Shown: positions 3,302 to 19,216 of the stretch, one piece after another | Layout: each line of letters starts with the position of its first letter | Position numbering within the stretch: the stretch's first letter is position 1 | Virus record (IMG/VR): IMGVR_UViG_3300013136_000033 | Coordinates: 1 to 29,348 of that record | Direction: 5' to 3' (one strand) | DNA: 29,348 nucleotides | Origin: a virus | Position numbers and translations under genes: made by a program | The notes under the pieces: model-generated | The model's database searches: none | Told to the model about the DNA's origin: nothing | Seen by the model: the letters and a program-made list of their open reading frames with translations, nothing else

Positions 3302-3311
3302 TAGTATTTTT
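3281..3311 (-). terminator. overlapping A/U hairpins after terminase
   Basis: An 8-base arm at 3292-3299 (AAAAATAC) can pair either with 3304-3311 across a 4-base loop or with 3281-3288 across a 3-base loop. As RNA from the minus strand the first hairpin starts inside the terminase stop codon and its 3' arm ends in five U. This could act as a weak terminator or RNA-end stabiliser, but the stem has almost no G-C pairs and no separate U tract follows. Confidence 0.3.
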
Positions 3312-6300
3312 AAGCTCCAAGAAATCCTCGACCAGGACTACCTTGTGCTGCGTGATAACAAACTCCTGCTACTGCATCAGCCACATCTTTACTTCCACGT
3401 CTAGGGTGGTCAATTTTAGTTCCTTTAAGTTCTTCTAATTGTTGCAATTCTTCTATTAATGGTGGATAGAAGTAAAAATTTAATCGACTATCTAATAATG
3501 CAGATTTTAATGTATAGTAAGCTTCTGGGTTTCTATCAATTGAAAATAATTCAGCATTGAACCCTGCTGACTTTAATGTTTGAATTGAGTCAATTGAATT
3601 ATGAACAAATATACCAGCACTTAATCCAAAATTATGAGTTTTTGGAACTTCTATATCATAAACATCTTCGTATCCATAAAATTTAACTGAAACAACTTTA
3701 TGGTTATTTTGTGATTTATAATCTCTGAAACCTTTATATCCTAATGATTTTAATCTTCTAATTACAAAATTGGTATTTTTTAGATTTAATTTACTTTTAA
3801 TTTCTTTTAATGTTTTACTTTCTAAACAGGTTTTAAATAACAATTCATTACTTATTTCTTTATTAAAATGTGGTGATTCTTTTCCAGAATAAACTGGTCT
3901 ATTTTTCATTTTTTCTATATATTTTTTATCATTATTCCATTTATTTCGAATTATCAGAGCTATTTTTTTAGCAATTTCTTTAGTAGGTGGTTTTAATAAT
4001 AATGGCAAATTGAATTTTATATTTCTTTCTCGCATTAATTGTGCTTGATTTTCTCGAACACCATCACGAGACCATCTTATTTTATTTGATTTTTGTGTTA
4101 ACTTTTTATGATATGCAATATGTTTTTTAATATGTAAATATTGAAGGTTATTTGGACTATTATCAATACTTTTAAAGTTTTTATGATGTACAACATTATC
4201 TTTAGGTTTTTTTCCATAAATATTTCTAGCAACCATATCATGAGTCATTTCCCAATTATTTGTTTCTGGTTGTAAAACTTTTTGATAGTATCTTGGTTTT
4301 ATGTCTGTTTTGTTTTTTCTTACTAAAAAATCAGTATATAAAGGCATTAAACTGTCACCTATATTTAAAAATTCAACTTGTTTGTATGTACCATCTTTCA
4401 TTAACATTGGATGTTCTTTTGTTAAATAAACTTTTTCTCCATTATCTATTTCAATTTCATACACAGGTGCTTTAATTCCAGTTCTTCTTACTGGTTTACA
4501 AAAAGCTGGAACTATTTCTTTTTTAGTTAAATCATATGAGTAAATCCATGCACCATTTGTAATTTCATCCATTCTCATATCTGTACCATTAAGTAATTTA
4601 ACCATTGTACTTCCAATTTCTGATTGCCAACCATCAAATGAGATTTTAGCAATATTGTATCCAATATCTTTAAGTTTATAAATCCATTTTCTCACTTCTT
4701 CAAATTGAATTTCATCTCTTGCGCTTTTTGCTTTAATACGAAGCATAAAATCAATAAATATTTTTGGTCTTTTTTCAATCTTTCCTTCTATACTTTTATG
4801 TTCTCCCCAACCTGCAAATTTACCCATAGCAAAACCTGCACAGTCTCCCTTTCCTTCTTTATTTAAACCTAAATCAATATGAATAAATCGTTTATCTGAA
4901 TCATAGTTTTGATTGCTTTGAAGATTATAAAACCATTCTGCAAAATCTCCTGTTTTTAAATCTATTGGATGTTTTCTATTATAATTCGCTGCATTTTTAA
5001 TAGTATCTGGATCATTAAAGAATCCTTGAATTGCCATTGAAGGTTGTGCTCCATAATCACGCATAGCTCTTTCAGGATTTTGTTTAAATTCATCTTCATA
5101 TTCAATAGGAACTTTTACTCCTTTCAAATTAGGTAGATAATCACCAAGATCAAAATATTTACCACAAAATACTTCTTTAGGCATTGCATCCCATAAAGGA
5201 ACTCTGCGTTTGAATAGTTTTGGATTAATATCACCTTCAGCAAACTTTTTTTCAGCAAAATCATAGACGTAGCGTGGAGAAGTAATAATAAAAAGTTTTC
5301 CCTTCGAAAAGAAACGAGAACGAATACGTTTCTTAATCTGATTATAAGATTCTTCAGCATAGTCTTTATCTTTAGTTAAAGTATGAAACGAAGCCTCATC
5401 GATAACAGCTCCAAAAATATTATATCCAAGTGGAGCTTCTTCGTTTGAACCCACAGGAAGAATATAGATATTTTTATGCATTCTCATTTTAGATTTAATA
5501 CGAGGATCTTGAGGATAGAATGTTTGGAACCATTTATTATTATCAAGTCTATTTTTTATTTCTCCAAAAACAACGTCTTTAGCTTGATTAAATGATTTAG
5601 AAACATTAATAAAGGCTATTTTAGTTCCTTTTGCCATTTTAAAGTATTCTTGAGGATTACGAATACAGAGAAGACGATAAATACTATAAACTATCGCCAT
5701 AGAAGACACGTAGGACTTACCACTATTATGGGTAACGGTAAAATCATCCATTAAATAAAGATGGTTTTTATCAAGTTCAAAACCATAAAAGTTATCTATT
5801 TCTAGTTCTTCTATTTTAAATCCAGTATAAAGAACATTTTTTATTTGCTTTCTTTTAGTACATTGTTTTCTTTTTAATTTAGTAGGTATTTCTTCTAAAT
5901 TTCCTGATATGGAAACCCTAAAGGAAGAAAGTGTTTTTCCTTTAGAAGAAGTTTCTCTTTGTTTTATGTATGCAGCAAATCCTAGCGAACGACATAGATA
6001 TGCCACGTCTTCACATAAAATAATATTTTTATTAGAAAATTCTAAACAATTATTTCCTTGATATCCATCGCTATCAATTAATCCTGCCAATAATTGTAAT
6101 CTAATTTTTCTGGAATTTGTTTTATAAACCAATGGAATATGTTTATTATTAAGCAAATTGTATTGTTTTAATTTCTCCAATAATGAATTTCTATTCTTAC
6201 TTCCGAGATTAGTACCAGTAGTAATATTATAGGTTGGACATGCTTTATTCTCATTTTGATTTATAGAGACTTGAAGTTTAAGTTTTTTTGCTTGTTGATA

Positions 6301-7044
6301 AATATACTCCATTATTTCTTTATCTGCCGTTGTTATCCCTGTATTATTTTTTGAACCGTCTCCTAGCCAAAGTCCAAGAAGGTATGGATTTATTTCAATT
6401 TTCTTTTTGTTAAAGTTAATTCCAGTTCTCCATAATTTCAGTATTCTCTTCATTTTTTTACTTAATTTTAAGTAGTCTGCAATAGATATATTAACTATTT
6501 TCCCCGCTTTTTGATCTAACCTACCATTTTTTGCAATAATTCCTTTATTGGTTCTTTTAAGAGAAATCTTGTGGTTTTCATTAACAACAAAAGGATTCCC
6601 TTTGGTTGGGATAATTTTATACATTTTTTGTTTACCCCTTTTTAAAGAAGTTACTTTTCTTGAAGTACTATCATCTCCCATCAGCAAATCGCCTACTTTA
6701 ATATCTTCAACTTTTTTTATCTCACCAGAGTATAAAAGGATTTTTGTTCCTTTTGCATGACATCCAATTCCTGCTATATAGAGAGCTTCTTCATATTTTC
6801 CTAAGTTTTCAAATTCTTCAAAAGTTGTACCACTATCGAAGATATCGATTAGGAGTTGTTTATTAAAAGGTCTTGGAGCATCCTGCGGATCAACAAAATT
6901 AGGATTTTCCAGAAACTCCTTCATCGTTATTGGTCGATGTTGGTATTGCGGGTGGCTCATTAGAAACTCCATTGTTTCCAACTTGCCCACCTCTGCGTTT
7001 TCCAAGTACTTCACGAATTGCTGTGAGAATAGTAGATTGTTCAT
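3310..7044 (-). CDS. terL: terminase large subunit carrying two inteins
   Basis: The 1244-residue precursor of the ATP-driven DNA packaging motor and headful nuclease. Two inteins (residues 95-440 and 808-1149) interrupt it; joined exteins give 556 residues, a normal terminase size. After splicing, the Walker A motif reads AGIGSGKS (A91-G94 joined to S441-S444). Walker B is AVIDEA (D549, E550). The RNase H-like nuclease domain has D724 (IHIDLG), D804 (ISFDGWQ) and D1220/D1223 (SKDVADAV). Translation may start at ATG 7044, or later at residues 25, 30 or 41; the segment PITMKEFLENP (38-48) looks conserved, so residue 25 (position 6972) or 30 is plausible. It overlaps the gene upstream and precedes the portal gene. 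Family call very secure. Confidence 0.93.
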   Translation of the reverse strand: MNNLLFSQQFVKYLENAEVGKLETMEFLMSHPQYQHRPITMKEFLENPNFVDPQDAPRPFNKQLLIDIFDSGTTFEEFENLGKYEEALYIAGIGCHAKGTKILLYSGEIKKVEDIKVGDLLMGDDSTSRKVTSLKRGKQKMYKIIPTKGNPFVVNENHKISLKRTNKGIIAKNGRLDQKAGKIVNISIADYLKLSKKMKRILKLWRTGINFNKKKIEINPYLLGLWLGDGSKNNTGITTADKEIMEYIYQQAKKLKLQVSINQNENKACPTYNITTGTNLGSKNRNSLLEKLKQYNLLNNKHIPLVYKTNSRKIRLQLLAGLIDSDGYQGNNCLEFSNKNIILCEDVAYLCRSLGFAAYIKQRETSSKGKTLSSFRVSISGNLEEIPTKLKRKQCTKRKQIKNVLYTGFKIEELEIDNFYGFELDKNHLYLMDDFTVTHNSGKSYVSSMAIVYSIYRLLCIRNPQEYFKMAKGTKIAFINVSKSFNQAKDVVFGEIKNRLDNNKWFQTFYPQDPRIKSKMRMHKNIYILPVGSNEEAPLGYNIFGAVIDEASFHTLTKDKDYAEESYNQIKKRIRSRFFSKGKLFIITSPRYVYDFAEKKFAEGDINPKLFKRRVPLWDAMPKEVFCGKYFDLGDYLPNLKGVKVPIEYEDEFKQNPERAMRDYGAQPSMAIQGFFNDPDTIKNAANYNRKHPIDLKTGDFAEWFYNLQSNQNYDSDKRFIHIDLGLNKEGKGDCAGFAMGKFAGWGEHKSIEGKIEKRPKIFIDFMLRIKAKSARDEIQFEEVRKWIYKLKDIGYNIAKISFDGWQSEIGSTMVKLLNGTDMRMDEITNGAWIYSYDLTKKEIVPAFCKPVRRTGIKAPVYEIEIDNGEKVYLTKEHPMLMKDGTYKQVEFLNIGDSLMPLYTDFLVRKNKTDIKPRYYQKVLQPETNNWEMTHDMVARNIYGKKPKDNVVHHKNFKSIDNSPNNLQYLHIKKHIAYHKKLTQKSNKIRWSRDGVRENQAQLMRERNIKFNLPLLLKPPTKEIAKKIALIIRNKWNNDKKYIEKMKNRPVYSGKESPHFNKEISNELLFKTCLESKTLKEIKSKLNLKNTNFVIRRLKSLGYKGFRDYKSQNNHKVVSVKFYGYEDVYDIEVPKTHNFGLSAGIFVHNSIDSIQTLKSAGFNAELFSIDRNPEAYYTLKSALLDSRLNFYFYPPLIEELQQLEELKGTKIDHPRRGSKDVADAVAGVCYHAAQGSPGRGFLGA
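3598..4623 (-). other. intein 2 in terminase: Ser1 intein with HNH endonuclease
   Basis: Residues 808-1149 of the precursor (342 residues). The splicing domain starts at Ser808 (SEIGSTMVKLLNGT, aligning with the usual C-xx-GDT-x-I start), has block B at GEKVYLTKEHPML (about 869-881), and ends with block F (VYDIEVPKTHNFG) and VHN before Ser1150. Joining Q807 to S1150 restores the usual terminase string DGWQSIDSIQTL. The centre carries an HNH endonuclease: VVHHKNFKSIDNSPNNLQYL (951-970) and the following HIKKHIAYHK, then a helix-turn-helix tail (about 1065-1110). It sits next to nuclease aspartate D804. A serine as first residue is less common than cysteine but known among inteins. Confidence 0.88.
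5725..6762 (-). other. intein 1 in terminase: Cys1 intein with LAGLIDADG endonuclease
   Basis: Residues 95-440 of the precursor (346 residues). It begins with Cys95 (CHAKGTKILLYSGEIKKVED), has a block B-like NPFVVNENHKISL, and ends with block F (FYGFELDKNHLYLMDD) and VTHN before Ser441. The two LAGLIDADG helices are YLLGLWLGDG (221-230) and LLAGLIDSDG (318-327), each with an acidic residue at the metal site. It splits the Walker A loop between G94 and S441, so the terminase has no ATPase until splicing. Boundary codons were checked: TGT at 6762-6760 and AAT at 5727-5725. Confidence 0.92.
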
Positions 7045-7561
7045 CTTTTCCTAGTTTATGAAACTCTGTTGCATAATTTGTTAATTTTGTTTCTTCATTA
7101 ATATCAGGATTAGTTGCATCTCCTAATTCTATTCCTTCAATCTCAGACATCTTATTTAAAATTGATAAAGCTGTATTTAAAAAACTATTTTTAATTGCTC
7201 CTTTAGCATCAAGATATTGACGTATAGCTTGATTATATAAAAATTTTAACTTATCTAAAATTTCTGCTCGTTTTTCAGGGTGTGGGACTACTGAAGCCAC
7301 ATCTTCTTGTCTTATATAATCCATATCAGATTTTATTATGGCTTCTGATAATGGAACTTTAACTGTTATATTCCCTACTTTTATTCCTTTATCTAATATA
7401 AGAACTATTTGATGTGGCTCATATCCCATTCTTACCAATTCACGAACTTTACCCCTTCTTATGGCTATCTTATTTATTTCCCCTATCTTAGAAGCATCTT
7501 CTTTTAATGCTTCTTCAGATATAGGAAATACATTATCTATATCAAGCGCTACCTTTGTCAT
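6899..7561 (-). CDS. probable terminase small subunit
   Basis: A 220-residue protein directly upstream of, and overlapping, the large terminase. The N-terminal third looks helical with a helix-turn-helix-like stretch (KVRELVRMGYEPHQIVLILD, about 38-57), as expected for the DNA-recognition domain of a small terminase. The middle (about 100-150) is a long helical region, and the last 30 residues are Asn, Pro, Ser and Thr-rich and disordered. The gene starts 20 bp inside the ParB-domain gene. The call rests mainly on position and domain layout; I see no motif that proves it. Confidence 0.6.
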   Translation of the reverse strand: MTKVALDIDNVFPISEEALKEDASKIGEINKIAIRRGKVRELVRMGYEPHQIVLILDKGIKVGNITVKVPLSEAIIKSDMDYIRQEDVASVVPHPEKRAEILDKLKFLYNQAIRQYLDAKGAIKNSFLNTALSILNKMSEIEGIELGDATNPDINEETKLTNYATEFHKLGKDEQSTILTAIREVLGKRRGGQVGNNGVSNEPPAIPTSTNNDEGVSGKS

Positions 7562-8186
7562 GTGTTTGTATTTTTAAATATTCAAGACAAATTTTTACAA
7601 GACCTTCTGCTGTACTTTCTTCTCCTATTTCTTTAAGTGCTGTTTCAATAATCTTATGTTGTTTATCTGTAAGCATTACTTCAAATTTATATTCAGTTGG
7701 CACATCTGATGGTAAATCTTCTTCCTCTCCTTCATTATATTGATTAAAATCAAAATTCATTAGATTTTCCAATCCTTCCTGTTCTTCTTTCGTATATCCT
7801 AATTTTTCTTCTATTTCTTCAGTAGAATAAGTTTTATGTAACTCATGAATGACTTCTGCTTCTTTTATTGGGTCATTCTCTCCACGTGCTTTATTTAAAC
7901 GTAATGTAGAAATCATAGCTTCAGGAGTATCTTTTGCTTTAACTTCAACTTTAATTGTTTCATATCCAAGCTCTCTTGCTGCTTTCCATCTATGTTCTCC
8001 ATCAATAATTATAAATTCATTTGGTTTATCAGGATCTTCTCTTACTATAATCTCTCCCATTAATCCATCTTCTTCTATGCTTTTGAGAGTTAATTTATAA
8101 GTTCTGTCATCCATTTTATTTGGATTATAAGGATTAGGATGAACGAGATTAATATCGACTTCCCTTATATCAGGTTTGTCTTTCAT
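7542..8186 (-). CDS. ParB/sulfiredoxin-domain protein
   Basis: A 214-residue protein. Residues about 7-100 form a ParB-N/Srx domain: VDINLVHPNPYNPNKMDD, then IEEDGLMGEIIVRE, then FIIIDGEHRWKAARELGY (about 58-75), where GEHRWKAA is the nucleotide-binding signature. A helical segment with TYSTEEIEEKLGY (helix-turn-helix-like) follows, then an acidic linker and a C-terminal helical domain. Relatives in phages act as DNA-binding or CTP/ATP-using partners in partitioning, packaging or DNA modification. It begins 3 bases after the stop of the DpdA-like gene and overlaps the terminase block, so it may help modify DNA or prepare it for packaging. The DpdB protein of bacterial deazaguanine systems is, as I recall, also of this superfamily. 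Confidence 0.82.
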   Translation of the reverse strand: MKDKPDIREVDINLVHPNPYNPNKMDDRTYKLTLKSIEEDGLMGEIIVREDPDKPNEFIIIDGEHRWKAARELGYETIKVEVKAKDTPEAMISTLRLNKARGENDPIKEAEVIHELHKTYSTEEIEEKLGYTKEEQEGLENLMNFDFNQYNEGEEEDLPSDVPTEYKFEVMLTDKQHKIIETALKEIGEESTAEGLVKICLEYLKIQTHDKGSA

Positions 8187-8189
8187 AGT

Positions 8190-9026
8190 TTAAATAAGAT
8201 TTACACCACGTCTTAACCAGACTTCAGTGCATAATTTATAAAATTGATCTATCATGATTATATTAAATCTAAGTCGATTATAATACTTTAATTTTCCTGC
8301 TTTTTTCTCATCTAGAAGATCAATAATATTAGGATAAAGTCTTTGAATTTGTTTTGTATATTTTAAAATCTTATCTTTATCTTTATAACTGACACCTACA
8401 AAATTATTTATTGTTGGAATCATTAATGTTCCTGTTATACAACCAGAGAGCCAAGATGTAGCATCAACACTATAAAAAGGGTATTTAAGAATAAGTCTTG
8501 GAGCAAAAATAGCAAAACCATGAACTTTTAATCCTTTCTTTTTAACAATTCTTGAAAAACAACTATTAAGCCATCGATCTAACTTATCTCTTTGTCCCCG
8601 AAGCTGTGCAACTCCACCTAAAGCAATATAGTCATAATCTCTTACATAAATATCAAGATATTTAAAATCTTCACCATGATGAAAAGTAGCAAGTGGCATA
8701 AGTCCAGCTTTTTGCATATAAAGTTGATTTTTATAAGTCTGTTCTGCATCTCCAATAACATCAAGTCCGCAATAAACAGTAATTTTATGTTTCCATCTTT
8801 TTATGAAATCAATATAAGCATCTATGTCTATTTTAGCTCCTGTAGTGAAAGCAGAGAAGGCTCCAGAATCAAGAAAAATATCTTTCTGTCCATAAAGATT
8901 AAATATTTGAGAGTTCTTTTTTTCATTCTGTGTTATTGAATAATATGAACAAAGAAGTGATTTTGCTTCTGGAATATTTTTTAAAAAATCATAGAATCCT
9001 TCTGATCCTGCCAAATAAAATTTCAT
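8190..9026 (-). CDS. dpdA: DpdA-like 7-deazaguanine DNA transglycosylase
   Basis: A 278-residue protein of the tRNA-guanine transglycosylase superfamily. Visible motifs: IFLDSGAFSAF with D53; YCGLDVIGDAEQTYKNQ with D89; YIALGGV (133-139); KVHGFAIF (167-174); and FYSVDATSWL with D188, matching the SVDST nucleophile loop. The zinc-binding Cys cluster of tRNA enzymes is absent, as is usual for the phage DNA-modifying DpdA branch. It would exchange guanine in DNA for a 7-deazaguanine base. The genes upstream encode base synthesis; the start overlaps the nitrilase-like gene by 4 bp. The substrate base (CDG, preQ0 or a derivative) cannot be told from sequence. Confidence 0.85.
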   Translation of the reverse strand: MKFYLAGSEGFYDFLKNIPEAKSLLCSYYSITQNEKKNSQIFNLYGQKDIFLDSGAFSAFTTGAKIDIDAYIDFIKRWKHKITVYCGLDVIGDAEQTYKNQLYMQKAGLMPLATFHHGEDFKYLDIYVRDYDYIALGGVAQLRGQRDKLDRWLNSCFSRIVKKKGLKVHGFAIFAPRLILKYPFYSVDATSWLSGCITGTLMIPTINNFVGVSYKDKDKILKYTKQIQRLYPNIIDLLDEKKAGKLKYYNRLRFNIIMIDQFYKLCTEVWLRRGVNLI

Positions 9027-10015
9027 ATTTTCTTATTAAAAGATTTTCTTTTAAATCTTAATTCTTTTAATTTTTTAAAAACTTGTTCTTGATATGTATC
9101 ACCCATCATTCTCTTAATAATTCTATGAATTTTAAACATCATTGTATATTCATTTATTGAAAAAGGAGGAAAATGACCTACTCTATCAGCAAAGCTAAAT
9201 TTATCTTCTCTATATCCTCTTACTGCTTCAAAATTAATATCTTCAGTAACTACAATATCTTTTTCTAAAGCTTCTTTTGTTACTTCAAGTCCATCTTTAT
9301 TTTCATATGGATAATAAACTCCTACTAAGGGTTGAAACTTCGCTTTAAGACCCCAAGAATTTGTTGAACAAGCAATGGGACACATTAATTCAAATTTAGA
9401 AGCATATTTAAGTCTTTCTAACCAAATATCCCCACCACACCATTCAATACTTTTTACTTTCATTAATCCAAAAGCATTCTTTTCATTTTTAGGGTATCCA
9501 GCTATTCCAAATTTAACTTGTGAAACTACAAGATCAGGTTCTAGCATACCTAATCCTGCCATCATCATATCTCCAAAAACTTCCCAACAAAAAAATCCTG
9601 TAACATTTAATCCTTTTATCTTAAATGTTTTTAGTCTATTATCAAGATTGTCTTCGGGTTTTAAAGCATAAGTTCCTTTTCCTAATACACAATAATTAGG
9701 TTCAGCGAATTTAGTTATTTCTCCTTTTAAAGTACCATCAATAAACCACATTTTTTCTTGATTATACTCATCAGTTATCTTTTCAATAAGACCTACAACT
9801 AAAGCAGTATTTGTTTCTTGACTTAATTTTTCAAGTTTAGGAAGAATAAAAGATCGTTCAAAAGCTTTTTCTTCAGGCATAATATAATCTCCACCAAAAT
9901 ATTCCTGCGGGGTTATGAATATATCTGTCTTTAAAGCTTTAACTTGAGTTTCTAACCATTCAAATTTATCTTTAAATGTATATTTTTGGAATGGAATACA
10001 AGTAGTAATCTTCAT
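9023..10015 (-). CDS. nitrilase-superfamily (carbon-nitrogen hydrolase) enzyme
   Basis: A 330-residue protein with the nitrilase/amidase fold pattern. Candidate catalytic triad: Glu38 in TPQEYFGG, Lys102 in GEITKFAEPNY, and Cys143 in GFFCWEVFGD, in the right order and spacing. Supporting segments are ALVVGLIE (71-78), PDLVVSQVKFG after the Cys, and a sandwich-like C-terminal half. Enzymes of this superfamily hydrolyse nitriles or amides, or act as glutaminase domains. It sits between folE and dpdA with 4-bp overlaps on both sides, so it very likely belongs to the deazaguanine pathway. It may convert a preQ0-type nitrile to amide or acid, or supply ammonia; this is inference. Family call good, reaction open. 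Confidence 0.72.
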   Translation of the reverse strand: MKITTCIPFQKYTFKDKFEWLETQVKALKTDIFITPQEYFGGDYIMPEEKAFERSFILPKLEKLSQETNTALVVGLIEKITDEYNQEKMWFIDGTLKGEITKFAEPNYCVLGKGTYALKPEDNLDNRLKTFKIKGLNVTGFFCWEVFGDMMMAGLGMLEPDLVVSQVKFGIAGYPKNEKNAFGLMKVKSIEWCGGDIWLERLKYASKFELMCPIACSTNSWGLKAKFQPLVGVYYPYENKDGLEVTKEALEKDIVVTEDINFEAVRGYREDKFSFADRVGHFPPFSINEYTMMFKIHRIIKRMMGDTYQEQVFKKLKELRFKRKSFNKKI

Positions 10016-10572
10016 TTTTGGTTTATTAGTTGATAAAATTCTTCTTTAGCATGAGGTTTAGTAAAGAAAGCTCCATATAGTTCTGCTGTTTTAACTCCTT
10101 CTGCTTCTTGAACACCTCTAAATTTCATACATCCATGAACACCATATACAACAATAGCAATTCCTAATGGATCAACTTTCTTTTTAAAATAATCAACTAT
10201 ATCTTTAGTTAAATCTTCTTGAAGTATAGGTCTTGCACATAATCTTTTTATAAGACGAGGAATTTTAGAAAGCCCTAATACTTTACCTTTTGGGATATAA
10301 GCAAAAGAGATTTTAAATTCAATAGGTAATAAATGATGAGGACATATTCCTACTGCTCTAATTTCTTTAAAAGAAACAATTCCATTATATTTACTTGGAA
10401 ATACTTTAAAATTATTAAAATCTTCATATAGTCCTAAATTCATTTCTTTAAAAGCTCTAGTTACTCTATCTGGTGTTTCTTTAAAATTAGGATCTTTTTT
10501 CCAATTTATACCCATTCCACTTAATAATAAAGATATTCCATTTTTTACTAATTTTTCATCAAATTTTTTCAT
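10012..10572 (-). CDS. folE: GTP cyclohydrolase I
   Basis: Converts GTP to dihydroneopterin triphosphate, the first step of 7-deazaguanine synthesis. From ATG 10572 the protein has 186 residues. Motifs: KETPDRVTRAFKEM; GICPHHLLPIEF with zinc ligands C77, H79 and H80; YIPKGKVLGLSKIPRLIKRL; RPILQEDLTKDI; and VVYGVHGCMKFRGV with H146 and C148. ATG 10572 shares an ATGA overlap with the queE stop and has AAGAAGG before it. An upstream ATG at 10593 would add seven residues (MGSKKKG) without a ribosome site. The 3' end overlaps the nitrilase-like gene by 4 bp. Confidence 0.93.
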   Translation of the reverse strand: MKKFDEKLVKNGISLLLSGMGINWKKDPNFKETPDRVTRAFKEMNLGLYEDFNNFKVFPSKYNGIVSFKEIRAVGICPHHLLPIEFKISFAYIPKGKVLGLSKIPRLIKRLCARPILQEDLTKDIVDYFKKKVDPLGIAIVVYGVHGCMKFRGVQEAEGVKTAELYGAFFTKPHAKEEFYQLINQK

Positions 10573-11420
10573 ACCCTTCTTCTTGCTCCCCATAGATTAA
10601 CATGTAATCTATCGAGTAATCTATAACCTCGATTTTTAGCAATTTCTACCACCTTCTTGGCATTTTCTGAAACTTCTGTGGCAGTTATACCTTGTGGCAT
10701 TAAAACTATTTTATTTACATCTAAATTAAATGGTTTAATAAAATCGTTTTCTACTTCTTCAACATCTTGTTCTCCCATAACTACAAATTTAAATTGAACA
10801 TCTATTTTATTTAAAATTTTAATTACTTCTGGTTTAATTCTTGCTGCTCTTATGTTTTTACTATTTTCAAGTTTAGGAGAACAGTTAAATTGACATTTTG
10901 CAAGTTGTTTCTTAGTTGGAATAATTGTTCCATTTGTTTCTATTTCAAACTTCCAATCAGGCATTAAATCCATTAATTGATCTATCTTATCTCTTTGAAG
11001 CAGAGGTTCACCTCCAGTGATAACTACTCTCTTTTGCTTCTTTGGATTCTTACAGAGCCAAGCTTCTTCTAGTCTTTGAGCCACTTCTTGAGGAGTTAAT
11101 TCATAGCTTTCTGTCCAAAATTCTTTACATTTAGGATTCCATGCATACCAAGCATCACACCAAACACAACGAAGATTACAAATATGAAGTCTTAAGAAAA
11201 CAGTAGGTTCTCCCATCGATTTTCCTTCTCCTTGAATAGTATAAAAAATACCATCTCCTGAAAGTCTGAATTTATCCATACTTAATCGTATATTTTGAGG
11301 TTTTCTTAATGAAGGATCGACTTCTTGATCTGCAACATCAAAAGCACGAATTAATTCAGGATCAAAACTTTCTTTTATTCCTCCCCCATATTCTCTTATA
11401 ATTTGTTCTTTAGTTGACAT
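10569..11420 (-). CDS. queE: 7-carboxy-7-deazaguanine synthase (radical SAM)
   Basis: Rearranges carboxytetrahydropterin to CDG using S-adenosylmethionine and a 4Fe-4S cluster. From ATG 11420 it has 283 residues. Signature segments: FYTIQGEGKSMGEPTVFLRL, then CNLRCVWCDAWYAW with cluster ligands C81, C85 and C88 (CxxxCxxC), RVVITGGEPLLQ (SAM-binding GGE), FEIETNGT, and FKFVVMG. The N-terminal extension of about 50 residues before the core is longer than usual. The frame also reaches a TTG at 11456, but ATG 11420, which overlaps the queD end by 11 bases, is more likely. A phage metK nearby could supply its cosubstrate. Confidence 0.93.
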   Translation of the reverse strand: MSTKEQIIREYGGGIKESFDPELIRAFDVADQEVDPSLRKPQNIRLSMDKFRLSGDGIFYTIQGEGKSMGEPTVFLRLHICNLRCVWCDAWYAWNPKCKEFWTESYELTPQEVAQRLEEAWLCKNPKKQKRVVITGGEPLLQRDKIDQLMDLMPDWKFEIETNGTIIPTKKQLAKCQFNCSPKLENSKNIRAARIKPEVIKILNKIDVQFKFVVMGEQDVEEVENDFIKPFNLDVNKIVLMPQGITATEVSENAKKVVEIAKNRGYRLLDRLHVNLWGARRRV

Positions 11421-11922
11421 ATTCGCTATAAATTGCTGAATTTGTAGGTGTTTCAAAAACTATAATTTCTTCTAGTTTAATATTTTTAGCAACTGCTTTT
11501 AAAACTGCTTCTAAATCTTTATAAATATCATGAGCAATATTTTCTGCAGTAGTGTTTTCATTCATCCATACAATCCACTCTTTTTCAGTATCAACTTCTT
11601 CTAAAGATTTTTCTATTGCTTCATTTAAAGGATCTCCTACTTTAAGAAGTAATTTATGATCGTATTTTTTATCAATATGATCTTTCATTACTTTTTTTAA
11701 ATCTCCAAAATCCATCGCAGCTCCCCAATGAAGTAGATTGTTAGAAGAAACTTTAACTTTAACTAAATATGTATGTCCATGAATTTTTTTACATTTACCT
11801 GCATAATTTGAAAGTCTATGAGCAGCATCAAAAGTTATTTCTGCTACTAATGAATATTTCGATTTAGTTCCTTTATCTGTTCTTATTTCAGAATTCTGGT
11901 TGTCCAAGGTGTTTTCTAACAT
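11410..11922 (-). CDS. queD: 6-carboxytetrahydropterin synthase
   Basis: Makes 6-carboxy-5,6,7,8-tetrahydropterin from dihydroneopterin triphosphate, the second step to CDG. The 170-residue protein shows the PTPS-like fold: ITFDAAHRL with H35, CKKIHGHTY with C44 (catalytic), H48 and H50 (zinc), AAMDFGDLKKVM, KYDHKLLL, NENTTAENIAHDIY, and the glutamate in VFETPTNSAIY. About 22 extra residues precede the fold. It starts 35 bp inside the nuclease-like gene upstream and overlaps queE, suggesting translational coupling. Confidence 0.92.
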   Translation of the reverse strand: MLENTLDNQNSEIRTDKGTKSKYSLVAEITFDAAHRLSNYAGKCKKIHGHTYLVKVKVSSNNLLHWGAAMDFGDLKKVMKDHIDKKYDHKLLLKVGDPLNEAIEKSLEEVDTEKEWIVWMNENTTAENIAHDIYKDLEAVLKAVAKNIKLEEIIVFETPTNSAIYSEYVN

Positions 11923-12220: not shown

Positions 12221-12286
12221 AATTTTACTAAAACTTATACCTTATTATACTTAATCATTTTTTAATTAAAAATACAAGTGTTTTTG

Positions 12287-12466
12287 TGCAGGAGTCAGGA
12301 TTCGAACCTGAGTTTACTTATTTTTCATTTATGTTTAGAGGGAATTGAATCCACGAGTAATCGTAGGCTCAGGCTCCCTCGAAACTAGATTGATTGTTGA
12401 CATAGAGCTAGAGAGCTTGTTTTAGTATGTCGGGTTAAGTTGTGCTAACCACTGCACTACTCTCGC
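12287..12466 (-). tRNA. interrupted tRNA with 115-base structured anticodon loop
   Basis: The 5' end gives an acceptor arm GCGAGAG, T8, A9 and a perfect D arm (GTGC, GCAC, loop AGTGGTTA). The 3' end gives a perfect T arm (TCAGG, TTCGAAT, CCTGA) and acceptor CTCCTGC plus A. The acceptor pairs with one A-C mismatch and one G-T pair. The anticodon stem ACTTA (12440-12436) pairs perfectly with TAAGT (12320-12316), but 115 bases lie between instead of 7. This insert folds into two hairpins: 12399-12431 (arms GACATA, TATGTC) and 12338-12380 (arms GAGGGA, TCCCTC with an inner bulged stem). Anticodon and amino acid cannot be assigned. CCA is not encoded. Confidence 0.55.
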
Positions 12467-12515
12467 ATTATAATGTTGACATTATAATGTTATATTTTGA
12501 CTACATTATAATGTT
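12466..12515. repeat. three copies of an AT palindrome (CATTATAATGTT)
   Basis: The 12-mer CATTATAATGTT occurs at 12466-12477, 12480-12491 and 12504-12515. Its core ATTATAAT is palindromic, so each copy holds TATAAT on both strands. The set lies in the 96-base gap between tRNA-Asn and the interrupted tRNA, and the first copy touches the 5' end of the latter. It may be a promoter or operator, or a small repeat cluster; no well-spaced -35 box is visible. Confidence 0.5.
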
Positions 12516-12519
12516 AAAG

Positions 12520-12535
12520 AGCTTTTAAAAAAGCT
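12520..12535. repeat. inverted repeat in tRNA spacer
   Basis: Arms AGCTTTT (12520-12526) and AAAAGCT (12529-12535) are perfect complements around two bases. It follows tRNA-Asn in the direction of transcription. No U tract follows, so a processing or weak termination role is only possible. Confidence 0.35.
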
Positions 12536-12562
12536 TATATATATTTTCTTAATTATCAAATG

Positions 12563-12634
12563 CTCCTTCGTCAGGGCTCGAACCTGTATCACTCGCTTAA
12601 CAGGCGAGCGCTTTACCAATTAAGCTACAAAGGA
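12563..12634 (-). tRNA. tRNA-Asn (anticodon GTT)
   Basis: A full cloverleaf: acceptor TCCTTTG/CGAAGGA (one G-T pair), T8, A9, D arm GCTT/AAGC with loop AATTGGTA, anticodon stem CTCGC/GCGAG with loop CTGTTAA, T loop TTCGAGC with four pairs plus an A-A mismatch at the base, discriminator G. CCA is not encoded. Its 5' end is one base from the CCA end of the preceding tRNA-Gln. Confidence 0.88.
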
Positions 12635-12635
12635 T

Positions 12636-12711
12636 TGGTTCTCCGCCAAGGTTTCGAACCTCGAATTTCTGGGTTCAAAGCCCAGCGTGTTGCCAATTAC
12701 ACTAGTGGAGA
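12636..12711 (-). tRNA. tRNA-Gln (anticodon TTG)
   Basis: Cloverleaf: acceptor TCTCCAC/GCGGAGA with an A-C mismatch at the 6-67 pair, T8, A9, D arm GTGT/ACAC with loop AATTGGCA, anticodon stem CTGGG/CCCAG with loop CTTTGAA (anticodon TTG, codon CAA), T arm CGAGG/CCTTG with loop TTCGAAA, discriminator A and an encoded CCA. Confidence 0.88.
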
Positions 12712-12810
12712 TTTATTTTTAAATGTTCTTATTCTATGACAATTTGCACAAACTACGTCACATTTTTTAATTTCTAATTTTTCAGACTTCTTTTTATTAG
12801 GAAAATTCAT
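12697..12810 (-). pseudogene. remnant of an HNH endonuclease gene (C-terminal piece)
   Basis: A 37-codon frame from ATG 12810 in the spacer between tRNA-Arg and tRNA-Gln encodes LEIKKCDVVCANCHRIRT (residues 12-29), which matches the C-terminal half of a common HNH endonuclease (E-x-x-KCDVVCANCHR). The N-terminal half with the DH motif is missing, and the frame ends inside the 5' part of tRNA-Gln(TTG). It looks like the relic of a homing endonuclease that once sat in the tRNA cluster. A tiny expressed zinc-finger protein is the alternative. Confidence 0.6.
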
Positions 12811-12831
12811 AGGGTTTTATTTGAGATTTTG

Positions 12832-12904
12832 TACCCCATAGATGATTTGAACATCTATCCTTGCCTTAGAAGGGCATAGCTCTGTCCAATTGAGCTAATG
12901 AGGT
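12832..12904 (-). tRNA. tRNA-Arg (anticodon TCT)
   Basis: Cloverleaf: acceptor ACCTCAT/ATGGGGT (one T-G pair), T8, A9, D arm GCTC/GAGC with loop AATTGGACA, anticodon stem TGCC/GGCA plus an A-A mismatch at its base, loop CTTCTAA (anticodon TCT, codon AGA), T arm AGATG/CATCT with loop TTCAAAT, discriminator A. CCA is not encoded. AGA is a frequent arginine codon in this AT-rich window, so the tRNA would support phage translation. Confidence 0.87.
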
Positions 12905-12924
12905 AACAATAAAATTAATTTTCA

Positions 12925-12999
12925 TGGTTCCCATCCAACGATTTGAACGTTGATTAACTGGTTCAGAGCCAGTTGACCTGCCTATTAGTCGAGTTGGGA
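12925..12999 (-). tRNA. tRNA-Gln (anticodon CTG)
   Basis: Cloverleaf: acceptor TCCCAAC/GATGGGA with an A-A mismatch at pair 6-67, T8, C9, D arm GACT/GGTC with loop AATAGGCA, anticodon stem ACTGG/CCAGT with loop CTCTGAA (anticodon CTG, codon CAG), T arm CAACG/CGTTG with loop TTCAAAT, discriminator A, encoded CCA. Like the other tRNA-Gln it has a mismatch at 6-67 and encodes CCA. Confidence 0.83.
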
Positions 13000-13005
13000 A
13001 ATAAG

Positions 13006-13077
13006 TCAGAATAGCTAGTGCTGCCCTAGCCGCCTCTTGGTCCCAGGCCAAGCGTTCTGCTGCTGAACTATATTCTG
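13006..13077 (-). tRNA. non-canonical tRNA-Pro-like (anticodon TGG)
   Basis: All four stems pair perfectly: acceptor CAGAATA/TATTCTG, D arm GTTC/GAAC, anticodon stem CTTGG/CCAAG, T stem GCTAG/CTAGC; length is 72 with discriminator A. The loops are abnormal. The anticodon loop CCTGGGA has C33 in place of the universal T33. The T loop is GGCAGCA, lacking TTC and A58. The D loop AGCAGCA lacks the GG pair. Anticodon TGG would read proline CCN codons. Intact stems with altered loops suggest a kept but unusual RNA rather than simple decay. Confidence 0.65.
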
Positions 13078-13083
13078 AATAAG

Positions 13084-13154
13084 CATGTTCTAAAGGAGTT
13101 GAACCCTTACTATCCGCTTTGGAGGCGGAGGTGCTACCATTACACCAAGAACAT
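13084..13154 (-). tRNA. tRNA-Trp (anticodon CCA)
   Basis: Cloverleaf: acceptor ATGTTCT/AGAACAT with seven pairs, D arm GTG/CAC with loop containing GG, anticodon stem TCCGC/GCGGA with loop CTCCAAA (anticodon CCA), T arm AAGGG/CCTTT with loop TTCAACT, discriminator G. CCA tail is not encoded. First RNA of the cluster in transcription order. Confidence 0.87.
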
Positions 13155-14553: not shown

Positions 14554-14765
14554 TTTGGTAATGAATAATAACCATTAAAAGCTGATTTACAAACTTTAAC
14601 TCTATTTGCAATTTTCTTTTCTTGTTTTTCTATCTTCTTTTTTAATTCTTCAACTCTTTCTTTTGTTGGTGGTCTATTTAATAACTCTCTTTTTAATTGA
14701 TCTCTATAAAAATGTAAAATTTCATAATCTCTATCTCTCATAATTCTTACTCTAGTTGTTTTCAT
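14550..14765 (-). CDS. hypothetical coiled-coil protein
   Basis: 71 residues from ATG 14765, which forms an ATGA overlap with the metK stop; the frame also extends four codons further upstream (MGKN), which is less likely. The body is one long basic coiled coil (DYEILHFYRDQLKRELL, then KERVEELKKKIEKQEKK). The C-terminus NGYYSLPK is short. Not recognised. Confidence 0.55.
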   Translation of the reverse strand: MKTTRVRIMRDRDYEILHFYRDQLKRELLNRPPTKERVEELKKKIEKQEKKIANRVKVCKSAFNGYYSLPK

Positions 14766-15739
14766 ATTTTTTCCCAAGGATACTCTTTATTTCCAAAATG
14801 ACCTTCTCTTGCTGTTTGTAAATATATTGGTCTTCTTAAATCAAATTTTTCAATAATAGCTTCGGGTCGACAATCATATCTAAAGTCTAATTCATGTTTT
14901 ACTTCTCCATTAATAATTGCAGTAGTCATAATAGGTTCTGTCTTACCTATAACATATCCAATTTTAACTAAAACTTCTTTTGCTCCATAAGTCTTCATTA
15001 ATTTAAGAGCAATCCAACGAGCCATATAAGCACCTGATCTATCAACTTTAGTTGGATCTTTTCCTGAGAAAGCACCACCACCAATAGGAACTCTTGGACC
15101 ATATTGATCTACTACTATTTTTCTACCTGTTACTCCACTATCAGCATCAAAACCACCATTATTAAATGATCCTGTATTATTACAATAAGCATTAAAGTCT
15201 GTTTTATGTTTAAAGAAGGTTCTTAAGTATAATTCTAAACTATCTTTTGTTTCATGTTGAATAGAAAGAACAACCTCTGTTATTTTTCCATCTTTAATAG
15301 TAACTTGACTTTTACCATCTCTTGCTTCAAAAGGATTAGAGCTCCAAGATTTAAGTAACTCTTTAGCAAGATATAATTCTTGAGGTATTTTCATTTCATT
15401 TTCATCACAAGCGTAACCTATTACAATTCCTTGATCTCCAGCGCCACCTTTATTTACTCCTTGCGATATTTCAGGACATTGAGTAATAATATTACTTAAA
15501 ACTCCAATATCTTTTTTAGTTAAAGAAAAATAAGTATCTCTTGCTACTTGTGCAAAATCTACCCTTCCTTTTGTAGTTACTTCTCCTATAAGAATAAGAG
15601 AATTATGTCCTCCTAAAGTCTCTACTGCCACTCTTGAAAAAGGATCTTGTTTAAGACATTCATCAAGAACTGCATCAGAAATTTGATCGCAGATTTTGTC
15701 AGGATGTAAAAAAGTAACTGATTCAGCTGTGTGTGTCAT
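14762..15739 (-). CDS. metK: S-adenosylmethionine synthetase
   Basis: Makes SAM from methionine and ATP. The 325-residue protein is shorter than the usual 380-400. Motifs: AESVTFLHPDKICDQISDAV (residues 5-24; the usual GHPDK has Leu for Gly), GAGDQGIVIGYA (99-110), DADSGVTGRKIVVDQYG (198-214), GGGAFSGKDPTKVDRS (220-235), and the C-terminal EGHFGNKEYPWEK. All ATP, methionine and phosphate-loop motifs are present; loss is in peripheral loops. It may feed the SAM-using QueE and the adenine methyltransferase of this phage, or raise SAM against host defences. It overlaps the upstream gene by 17 bp. Confidence 0.92.
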   Translation of the reverse strand: MTHTAESVTFLHPDKICDQISDAVLDECLKQDPFSRVAVETLGGHNSLILIGEVTTKGRVDFAQVARDTYFSLTKKDIGVLSNIITQCPEISQGVNKGGAGDQGIVIGYACDENEMKIPQELYLAKELLKSWSSNPFEARDGKSQVTIKDGKITEVVLSIQHETKDSLELYLRTFFKHKTDFNAYCNNTGSFNNGGFDADSGVTGRKIVVDQYGPRVPIGGGAFSGKDPTKVDRSGAYMARWIALKLMKTYGAKEVLVKIGYVIGKTEPIMTTAIINGEVKHELDFRYDCRPEAIIEKFDLRRPIYLQTAREGHFGNKEYPWEKI

Positions 15740-17639: not shown

Positions 17640-18146
17640 TCATATATGAAAAATTATTGTTTCACTTATATCTTTTATAAATTCTTTTAATGGAATTGCA
17701 TAAGAAAATGTTGTATACATATCATTTTCTGCTCTTATTTCCTTATAATTCTTCTTAATCTTATCTGCGTTTTTCATAACATATAACCATAAAAGGTGCA
17801 TAGGAATTAACAATATTCTATTTATTGGCTCATAGAAATAAACAATATAATCACATTGATCTTTAAAAGTCCATCCAGGTTTCTTATTTTTTTCATCTGA
17901 ATAAATTTCTATTAAAAAATCATAATATGCACTCCTTCTTATTTTTTCATCAATGCTGATATTGCTCCCATCTTGAAAGTGTAAAATGACATCTATCCCC
18001 TTTTTTTGTCTTAAAATATCATAAACTCTTTCAATCTTAATAAGTTTTCTTTTATTAAATATAGATTGATAAAATTTATCTAATTTCTCAATTATTTTTT
18101 TATCTAAAGAATAACTATTATCTTTCTTAAAATCATTAATTTTCAT
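17640..18146 (-). CDS. nuclease-like protein beside methyltransferase
   Basis: A 168-residue protein. The segment KGIDVILHFQDGSNISIDEK (residues 49-68), with D52 and the E67-K68 pair on successive strands, resembles the D...ExK core of the PD-(D/E)XK nuclease superfamily; a hydrophobic segment with DYIVYFYEPINRILLIP follows. The start overlaps the ParB-methyltransferase gene by 4 bp. A restriction-like or nicking activity linked to the methylase is possible, but equally it may be an inactive relative. Fold call tentative. Confidence 0.45.
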   Translation of the reverse strand: MKINDFKKDNSYSLDKKIIEKLDKFYQSIFNKRKLIKIERVYDILRQKKGIDVILHFQDGSNISIDEKIRRSAYYDFLIEIYSDEKNKKPGWTFKDQCDYIVYFYEPINRILLIPMHLLWLYVMKNADKIKKNYKEIRAENDMYTTFSYAIPLKEFIKDISETIIFHI

Positions 18147-19216
18147 AATTGATTACCAAAAACAGTCCATTTATCATTATATTTCTGTCTAGCAAATAAT
18201 TCTAAATATTTACCATTTGGAAAATATTTTTCTATAAGAGAATAAAAATAGTTTGGTTTTTTACTATGACTTGTTCTTTTTTCTTTATAAACAGAGGATG
18301 CTCTAATATTGGGATCTGGGACTGAAACTTGTCCTTTAGTTGCGACTAATAATAATTCATGCTGTCCTCTAAACCAATAACCCATACCTATTATTTCTTT
18401 ATCCCATATCATATGTGTTTTATATTCAAATCCCCATGCTTTGATTACTTCTAATGCCTCTCTTAATTTTGGTGCTGTTGCCCATAAAAAAATAACACAA
18501 TTTTCATTTAGCAGGTTTGTAATAGGCATATTTTTTATTTCCTCTAATTTCATAGTTGGATATTTATTTTCAATTTCTCTATTTTCTGTCTCTGTAAAGT
18601 CATATTTCCAAGGTGGATCGGCATAAATAACATCATATTTCCCCTCTGGCAATATTGGAATTGGTAAATTTTTATGTTCTTTTTTTATTAATTCTCTTTT
18701 TACCTCTGGTATTGTTTTTTTCCCTTGTTTTACTTCCTCGTATAAATCAGGGGATTCCTCTTTTAATTTCTCAACTTGTCTTATATATTCTTTATTTGCC
18801 CCTACAAGTTTTGCTGCTATTTGTTTAGCTTCGCCTTTTTCTCGTTCCGCAATTTTTTGTGGAACGAGAGTTTTATCGCCTTGTTTTAAATTAGATAGTT
18901 GTCTTTCTTTAGCTTCTTTTTCTAAGTTGGGTAATACGTCTAATGCTATACAAGCTAATTGAGAGGAATTTAAGTGTCGTCTTTTTATATTAAGAGAAAG
19001 AACATAACTTACAGGGCTATCCCCTTGATAATTTTCATATTTAGGTTCAATATTTAACTCTTTACAGGCTTTATAACGATTTCTACCGTCTAATATCTTA
19101 TACTCATAAAGCATAATAGGGTTAAATAATCCATTGGTTTGAATATCAAGTTTCAATGCTTTATATTCGTCGTCAGACATATTGGGAATGATATTGGCCA
19201 ATTCATGTGTTTCCAT
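18143..19216 (-). CDS. ParB-domain / MT-A70 adenine DNA methyltransferase fusion
   Basis: A 357-residue fusion. Residues about 1-80 form a ParB-N domain (IQTNGLFNPIMLYEYKILDG, then RNRYKAC). Residues 85-180 are helical with a KorB-like helix-turn-helix (AKQIAAKLVGANKEYIRQVE). Residues about 190-357 are an MT-A70-type N6-adenine methyltransferase with YDVIYADPPWKYDF (catalytic DPPW 200-203), VIFLWATAPKL, THMIWDKEIIGMGYW and the SAM-binding KYLELFARQ near the end. Such phage enzymes methylate DNA to evade restriction or mark replication. The ParB part likely supplies DNA targeting. SAM may come from the phage MetK. Confidence 0.88.
   Translation of the reverse strand: METHELANIIPNMSDDEYKALKLDIQTNGLFNPIMLYEYKILDGRNRYKACKELNIEPKYENYQGDSPVSYVLSLNIKRRHLNSSQLACIALDVLPNLEKEAKERQLSNLKQGDKTLVPQKIAEREKGEAKQIAAKLVGANKEYIRQVEKLKEESPDLYEEVKQGKKTIPEVKRELIKKEHKNLPIPILPEGKYDVIYADPPWKYDFTETENREIENKYPTMKLEEIKNMPITNLLNENCVIFLWATAPKLREALEVIKAWGFEYKTHMIWDKEIIGMGYWFRGQHELLLVATKGQVSVPDPNIRASSVYKEKRTSHSKKPNYFYSLIEKYFPNGKYLELFARQKYNDKWTVFGNQL

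What the first reader, a model, noticed from the sequence alone, without database searches (positions are those of the whole stretch)
8190..11922. Deazaguanine DNA-modification cluster with a nitrilase-like enzyme and no QueC
Seen: queD, queE, folE, a nitrilase-superfamily gene and dpdA are joined by overlaps of 4 to 11 bp. Known: FolE, QueD and QueE make CDG; QueC turns CDG into preQ0; DpdA inserts a 7-deazaguanine into DNA; phage and bacterial DNA with carboxy, amide, cyano and aminomethyl versions has been described. Inference: the nitrilase-like enzyme acts on the modification. If preQ0 (from host QueC or a gene outside the window) is inserted, the enzyme could hydrate or hydrolyse the nitrile to the amide (ADG) or acid (CDG), replacing DpdC. 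Otherwise it may provide ammonia to CDG. A nitrilase-fold member of such a cluster is not one I know.
Basis: partly seen in the sequence, partly recalled or inferred. Interest (0 to 1): 0.82.

Follow-up and report, generated by a model that had tools for sequence, protein, structure and literature searches.

The report
Nitrilase-like enzyme in QueC's place
A virus fragment and eleven other virus lineages carry a gene set for putting a modified guanine into their DNA in which the usual last enzyme, QueC, is missing and a previously undescribed nitrilase-fold enzyme sits in the cluster instead, which points to a DNA base, or a route to one, that nobody has yet measured.

Summary
The cluster is real: queD-queE-folE-X-dpdA, tightly overlapping, with no queC. 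X alone has no hit in Pfam, PHROGs, NCBIfam or the PDB, but a DpdA-guided scan of viral contigs found homologues that join it to the nitrilase superfamily. Ten of 13 family members match Pfam CN_hydrolase. A 13-sequence AlphaFold model (pLDDT 82) matches only nitrilase-superfamily structures among its best 50 PDB hits.

X occurs in 12 distinct virus groups, always in a dpdA cluster. In complete clusters, queC is absent from 8/8 with X and present in 40/47 without X (Fisher 5e-6, not corrected for phylogeny). In two cluster layouts the same slot holds queC, X, or a class-I methyltransferase.

DpdA loop residues that, by analogy with TGT, lie near the 7-substituent differ between queC clusters (L/M-V-P/G with G172) and queC-less ones (V-A-Q with A172). 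This argues that X-cluster DpdA does not insert preQ0, so a nitrile hydrolysed in DNA is unlikely.

Best reading: X works on the free base at the CDG/ADG/preQ0 level so that a carboxy- or carboxamido-deazaguanine is inserted; the exact reaction is unproven. One oddity: the canonical catalytic Glu aligns with an invariant Gln37, with Glu38 next to it.

The parts
11410..11922 (-). queD (6-carboxytetrahydropterin synthase)
   Evidence: PTPS 3.4e-32, phrog_2389 1.4e-34, TIGR03367 above its cut-off; CxxxHGH present
10569..11420 (-). queE (CDG synthase, radical SAM); ATG start chosen at 11420, the longest ORF starts TTG 11456
   Evidence: phrog_2076 2.9e-53; CNLRCVWC cluster motif; 11-bp overlap with queD
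10012..10572 (-). folE (GTP cyclohydrolase I); ATG start chosen at 10572, the longest ORF starts 10593
   Evidence: PF01227 4.3e-43; its weak QueF similarity is below the QueF cut-off
9023..10015 (-). X: nitrilase-superfamily protein in the queC slot; invariant Q37-E38, K102, C143
   Evidence: family of 13; profile-profile E 9.8e-11; AF2 pLDDT 82.3 and Foldseek best E 2.7e-12 to nitrilase-fold enzymes
8190..9026 (-). dpdA (DNA deazaguanine transglycosylase) with the V139-A140-Q141 / A172 pocket signature
   Evidence: phrog_887 1.1e-45; conserved DSGAFS, LD, YSVD motifs
7542..8186 (-). ParB-like protein directly downstream (context, not needed for the claim)
   Evidence: PF02195 1.4e-12; ParB also follows dpdA in L003 and L183
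11888..12220 (-). 110-aa protein upstream of queD; a related 110-aa protein is upstream of queD in L183 (context)
   Evidence: no significant Pfam hit; L183:3365-3697 in the same position

Best explanation
X is the finishing enzyme of a queC-less 7-deazaguanine DNA-modification pathway. Steps shown by sequence: the virus encodes FolE, QueD and QueE, which by established biochemistry make CDG; it encodes a DpdA whose base-pocket loops are of the queC-less type; and X, a nitrilase-fold protein with invariant Cys143 and Lys102, stands where related clusters have queC. Inferred: DpdA inserts the carboxy base CDG or its isostere ADG, not preQ0. The reaction I think most likely is hydration or hydrolysis, on the free base, of the nitrile or amide that host QueC makes from the virus's CDG. 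X would turn preQ0 or ADG back to CDG, or stop at ADG, so that the pool stays in the form this DpdA accepts. This explains why X and queC never occur together, since they would work against each other. Confidence that X is a cluster enzyme acting at the CDG/ADG/preQ0 level: about 0.75. Confidence in this particular reaction: 0.38.
For: X is always beside dpdA, and in every record long enough beside queD/queE/folE; three records without queE have X at or near a contig end. queC 0/8 with X against 40/47 without. Slot exchange in two layouts: queD-queE-[queC | X | MTase]-folE-dpdA and queD-queE-folE-[queC | X | MTase]-dpdA. On the DpdA tree the X label needs at least 4 changes on strongly supported branches, 9 on the best tree. 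Nitrilase fold. DpdA signature: A172 in 13/19 queC-less against 1/42 queC clusters, p 5e-8; A140 15/19 against 4/42, p 1.5e-7. QueC passes through an ADG intermediate (PMC13329287), so nitrile and amide substrates can exist in a host with QueC.
Against: No X record encodes anything that makes a nitrile or amide, so the substrate must come from the host, and hosts are unknown. The aligned catalytic Glu is Gln37 in all 13 members; Glu38 may or may not replace it. The methyltransferase that fills the same slot has CDG or dCDG as its only obvious substrate, which suggests that X too may act on CDG directly. On the DpdA tree only 4 independent pairs lie on supported branches, too few to prove the pocket link or the X/queC exclusion after phylogenetic correction.
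Confidence: 0.38

Rival explanations
1. X acts directly on CDG, or on dCDG already in DNA, by chemistry unusual for the fold: for example decarboxylation to 7-deazaguanine (the job given to DpdL in the literature, from memory) or conversion of the carboxylate to another group.
For: All X viruses with a long enough record make CDG themselves and lack queC and queF. The queC slot is shared with a methyltransferase that also has only CDG or dCDG to act on. The canonical Glu position is an invariant Gln, so X may not be an ordinary hydrolase. DpdA signature common to X and MTase clusters.
Against: No nitrilase-superfamily decarboxylase is known to me; making an amide from an acid needs energy input and no ATP enzyme is present.
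Confidence: 0.33
2. One reading: preQ0 is inserted by DpdA and X hydrates or hydrolyses the nitrile in DNA, replacing DpdC.
For: Nitrilase fold; phage 9g DpdA alone inserts preQ0 in E. coli (PMC6884629).
Against: DpdA of X clusters has a pocket signature different from queC-cluster DpdAs; no queC in any X record.
Confidence: 0.09
3. X is an amidase with a counter-defence role, for example cutting the CDG-protein amide made by QueC-like enzymes in Qat and type IV CBASS defence, and is kept beside the CDG genes for that reason.
For: Nitrilase-superfamily enzymes cleave amides; CDG-protein conjugation in defence has been reported (PMC13329287).
Against: Would not explain why X excludes queC or sits in the queC slot; no direct evidence.
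Confidence: 0.06
4. X is a glutaminase or amidase that supplies ammonia.
For: The best weak sequence hit in the PDB is the glutaminase part of NAD synthetase (E 0.003).
Against: No synthetase partner in the cluster; queC absent whenever X is present.
Confidence: 0.04

Closest known systems
Phage 7-deazaguanine clusters with FolE-QueD-QueE-QueC-DpdA (e.g. phages CAjan, Rosebush; PMC6884629)
   Same: Same CDG-making genes and DpdA; same gene neighbourhood types
   Different: QueC replaced by X; DpdA pocket loops of the queC-less type
queC-less phage clusters (Mycobacterium phage Bipper and clone 7AX_2, named in PMC6884629; Cellulophaga phage phiST)
   Same: CDG genes and no queC
   Different: No X homologue in any of 50,697 phage records; phiST has a MazG-like and unidentified small genes instead
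Nitrilase superfamily (CN_hydrolase PF00795), nearest solved folds N-carbamoylputrescine amidohydrolase, Nit2, cyanide dihydratase
   Same: Fold; Lys and Cys of the triad
   Different: Gln at the aligned Glu position followed by Glu; about 14% identity or less to solved structures; found only in deazaguanine clusters here
DpdC of bacterial dpd clusters (preQ0 to ADG)
   Same: Possible reaction
   Different: No comparison made here; from memory DpdC is of another family

Membership tests
Nitrilase (carbon-nitrogen hydrolase) superfamily | Sequence profile match | tested here: met
   10 of 13 family members match PF00795; the window's own protein alone does not; family profile against CN_hydrolase profile E 9.8e-11, decoys score about 19 or less, best of 200 shuffles 33.8 against 78.7
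Nitrilase (carbon-nitrogen hydrolase) superfamily | Nitrilase fold | tested here: met
   AF2 pLDDT 82.3, pTM 0.83; the best 50 PDB matches listed are all nitrilase superfamily, best E 2.7e-12, TM 0.5-0.7
Nitrilase (carbon-nitrogen hydrolase) superfamily | Catalytic Glu-Lys-Cys triad | tested here: inconclusive
   K102 and C143 invariant and aligned. Glu: ungapped alignments pair it with invariant Gln37, a one-residue gap would pair it with invariant Glu38
Nitrilase (carbon-nitrogen hydrolase) superfamily | C-N hydrolysis activity | not testable with these tools
   needs an assay
Phage 7-deazaguanine DNA-modification cluster | FolE, QueD, QueE and DpdA encoded together | tested here: met
Phage 7-deazaguanine DNA-modification cluster | QueC present (preQ0-type cluster) | tested here: not met
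   PF06508 absent from all 14 X records, controls positive
Phage 7-deazaguanine DNA-modification cluster | Modified deoxyguanosine in virion DNA | not testable with these tools
   no virion available
DpdL (CDG decarboxylase) | Homology to the described protein | not tested
   The paper (10.1093/nar/gkad657) is not held. Indirectly, no X homologue in phage records, and the only significant viral fold match is a cyanophage protein

The most novel reading that the evidence does not exclude
X is a nitrilase-fold enzyme with remodelled catalysis (Gln at the Glu position) that converts CDG or dCDG itself, for instance by decarboxylation or into a new carboxy-derived base. The queC slot of viral clusters would then be a general 'finishing' slot whose content (queC, X, methyltransferase) sets which deazaguanine the virus carries, with DpdA evolving to match.
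Probability: 0.3. Interest if true: 0.88.

Novelty: new variant of a known kind. Interest (0 to 1): 0.74.

Why it matters
It shows a second (and with the methyltransferase a third) way to end the viral deazaguanine pathway, predicts DNA bases or routes not yet measured, and gives a short sequence signature in DpdA that may predict which base is inserted. That makes the open question of what sets the base in each virus directly testable.

Tried and rejected
Direct searches with the window's X alone: nothing significant in Pfam, PHROGs, NCBIfam, PDB, phages, plasmids or GTDB genomes. Single-sequence AF2: pLDDT 33, useless. DNA-pattern scans on CWEVFGD and QEYFGGD: no new homologue. 793 genomes from two bacterial phyla (those of a Bacteroidia and a Pokkaliibacter genome) with the X profile: none at E 1e-12, with no positive control. 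P-SSM2, the only viral fold match, has no annotated queuosine genes, so it is not linked. The QueF-like hits in X records are FolE seen by a related model, all below cut-off. K113 was considered as the catalytic Lys and dropped because it is not conserved. Host identification was not possible with the tools at hand.

Full report
Observation. The window is a 29,348-base virus record with no end repeats. On its minus strand lie queD (11410-11922), queE (ATG 11420 to 10569), folE (ATG 10572 to 10012), X (10015-9023) and dpdA (9026-8190), joined by overlaps of 11, 4, 4 and 4 bases. Pfam and PHROGs confirm QueD, QueE, FolE and DpdA. X alone hits nothing significant in Pfam, PHROGs, NCBIfam or the PDB.

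A second virus, L003, keeps folE-X-dpdA-ParB-TerS-TerL in the same order, with X 74% and DpdA 59% identical. X is therefore a conserved protein and more conserved than its neighbour.

What X is. A two-sequence profile of X against a nitrilase profile built from 45 sequences gave a full-length but modest profile-profile match: score 34.3 over 227 columns, against at most 23.9 in 200 shuffles. To find relatives I scanned viral contigs with a DpdA alignment and searched the neighbourhoods. X homologues appeared in L186, L226 and copies, and L256. Three of these pass Pfam's own CN_hydrolase cut-off. A second scan with the enlarged family gave 17 loci. De-duplicated by DpdA sequence they make 12 virus groups, the window's included.

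In the family alignment Gln37, Glu38, Lys102 and Cys143 (FCWE) are invariant. Ten of 13 members match PF00795. The 13-sequence profile matches the nitrilase profile at E 9.8e-11, while five decoy profiles score about 19 or less. AlphaFold2 with this alignment gives pLDDT 82 and pTM 0.83. The 50 best PDB matches are all nitrilase-superfamily enzymes. TM-scores are only 0.5 to 0.7 and rmsd is large, so details of the C-terminal part are unsure. I consider the fold settled.

A caveat on the active site. Lys102 and Cys143 align with the catalytic Lys and Cys. In ungapped alignments, however, the proline before the catalytic Glu pairs with Pro36, the glycine six residues later with Gly42, and the Glu itself with Gln37; Glu38 follows. 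Either the Glu has moved by one residue or it is replaced by Gln. I could not measure the model's geometry, so this stays open. It matters because the Glu is the general base in known members (general knowledge).

Place in the cluster. Among distinct loci with queD, queE, folE and dpdA all present, queC is found in 40 of 47 without X and in 0 of 8 with X (Fisher p 5.3e-6; the test ignores phylogeny). PF06508 is absent from all 14 X records while the same search rings in all 14 control genomes. All of these records may be fragments. QueE is found in 11 of the 14; the other three have X at or near a contig end. Of the seven queC-less clusters without X, five have a class-I methyltransferase and two have nothing extra.

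Two layouts recur. In one, queD-queE-lysine-rich gene-[slot]-folE-dpdA, the slot holds queC (L222, L224), X (L266, L269) or the methyltransferase (L251, L252). In the other, queD-queE-folE-[slot]-dpdA, it holds queC (L191, L192), X (window, L273, L276) or the methyltransferase (L183). L183 also shares a 110-aa upstream gene position and downstream ParB genes with the window. A few X genes lie elsewhere in the cluster (L268, L271, L275). On the DpdA tree the X label needs at least four changes on strongly supported branches, so exchange has happened repeatedly.

DpdA. I compared DpdA columns between queC and queC-less clusters. The strongest columns fall in two loops: 139-141 (queC: L/M-V-P/G; queC-less: V-A-Q) and 172 (queC: G in 43 of 44 rows, second DpdA copies included; queC-less: mostly A). 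Counts by cluster: A172 13/19 against 1/42, p 5e-8; A140 15/19 against 4/42, p 1.5e-7. By analogy with tRNA-guanine transglycosylase (from memory: the GGLAVGE loop) these loops line the base's 7-substituent.

X clusters share the signature with methyltransferase clusters and one of the two clusters with nothing extra (L254; L184 departs from it). The simplest reading is that all of these insert a carboxy-type base (CDG, or its isostere ADG) and not preQ0. Limits: L266, L268, L271 and others only partly follow the pattern, and after phylogenetic correction only four independent pairs remain, too few for significance.

Mechanism. Shown: gene content, fold, conserved residues, absence of queC, DpdA covariation. 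Established: FolE, QueD and QueE make CDG, and QueC makes preQ0 through ADG (PMC13329287). Inferred: DpdA inserts CDG or ADG; X works at the free-base level. The chemistry most typical of the superfamily is hydrolysis or hydration of a nitrile or amide, here preQ0 or ADG made by host QueC from the virus's CDG. That would keep the pool in the form DpdA accepts and would make queC and X incompatible. I give this 0.38. Direct action on CDG or dCDG (decarboxylation or another change) gets 0.33, helped by the shared slot with a methyltransferase and the Gln at the Glu position. Insertion of preQ0 followed by hydrolysis in DNA is disfavoured by the DpdA data, and ammonia supply by the lack of any partner.

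Known or new. I found no description of a nitrilase-fold member of such a cluster in the held literature, and no homologue in 50,697 phage records. The 2023 paper on dCDG, dDG and DpdL could not be read, so I cannot exclude a mention there. The cluster is of a known kind; the enzyme and its exchange with queC look new.

Noticed in passing
L251:6758-7612, L252:7265-8260, L209:7567-8433, L187:5284-6192, L183:6210-7010: A class-I methyltransferase family (MRNFYAQ...FFSSLDVMNYIQHH...LDVCCGRG) fills the queC slot in five queC-less deazaguanine clusters; L251's copy has no homologue in the phage collection. It may methylate the carboxylate of CDG or dCDG.
   Followed up: partly
L221:7332-8048 and L221:5068-6768: A cluster that has queC (apparently interrupted by an intein) also carries a separate short CN_hydrolase protein between folE and dpdA in which the catalytic Glu position reads Ser (FPSSF).
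   Followed up: partly
window 3310-7044: The large terminase gene carries two inteins, one splitting the GxGKS nucleotide-binding motif (after GIG) and one near SFDGWQ; the relative in L003 has neither.
   Followed up: partly
window 14762-15739: A virus-encoded S-adenosylmethionine synthetase (all three Pfam domains), possibly serving the MT-A70 methyltransferase at 18143-19216, which has a ParB-like N-terminal part.
   Followed up: no
window 12280-13154: Five tRNA genes (Asn, Gln, Arg, Gln, Trp), and near 12280-12465 tRNA-like ends that ARAGORN does not call, possibly an interrupted or decayed tRNA.
   Followed up: no
L184, L254: Clusters with only queD, queE, folE and dpdA: candidates for plain dCDG.
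   Followed up: partly
L271:6929-8978, L274:5242-6875, L275:7108-8741: Two dpdA genes in tandem in X-bearing clusters; the second copy differs in the pocket loop in L271.
   Followed up: no
NC_006883 (Prochlorococcus phage P-SSM2): The only viral structure significantly like X in BFVD (Q58N00) is a CN hydrolase of P-SSM2, in a genome with no annotated queuosine genes.
   Followed up: partly
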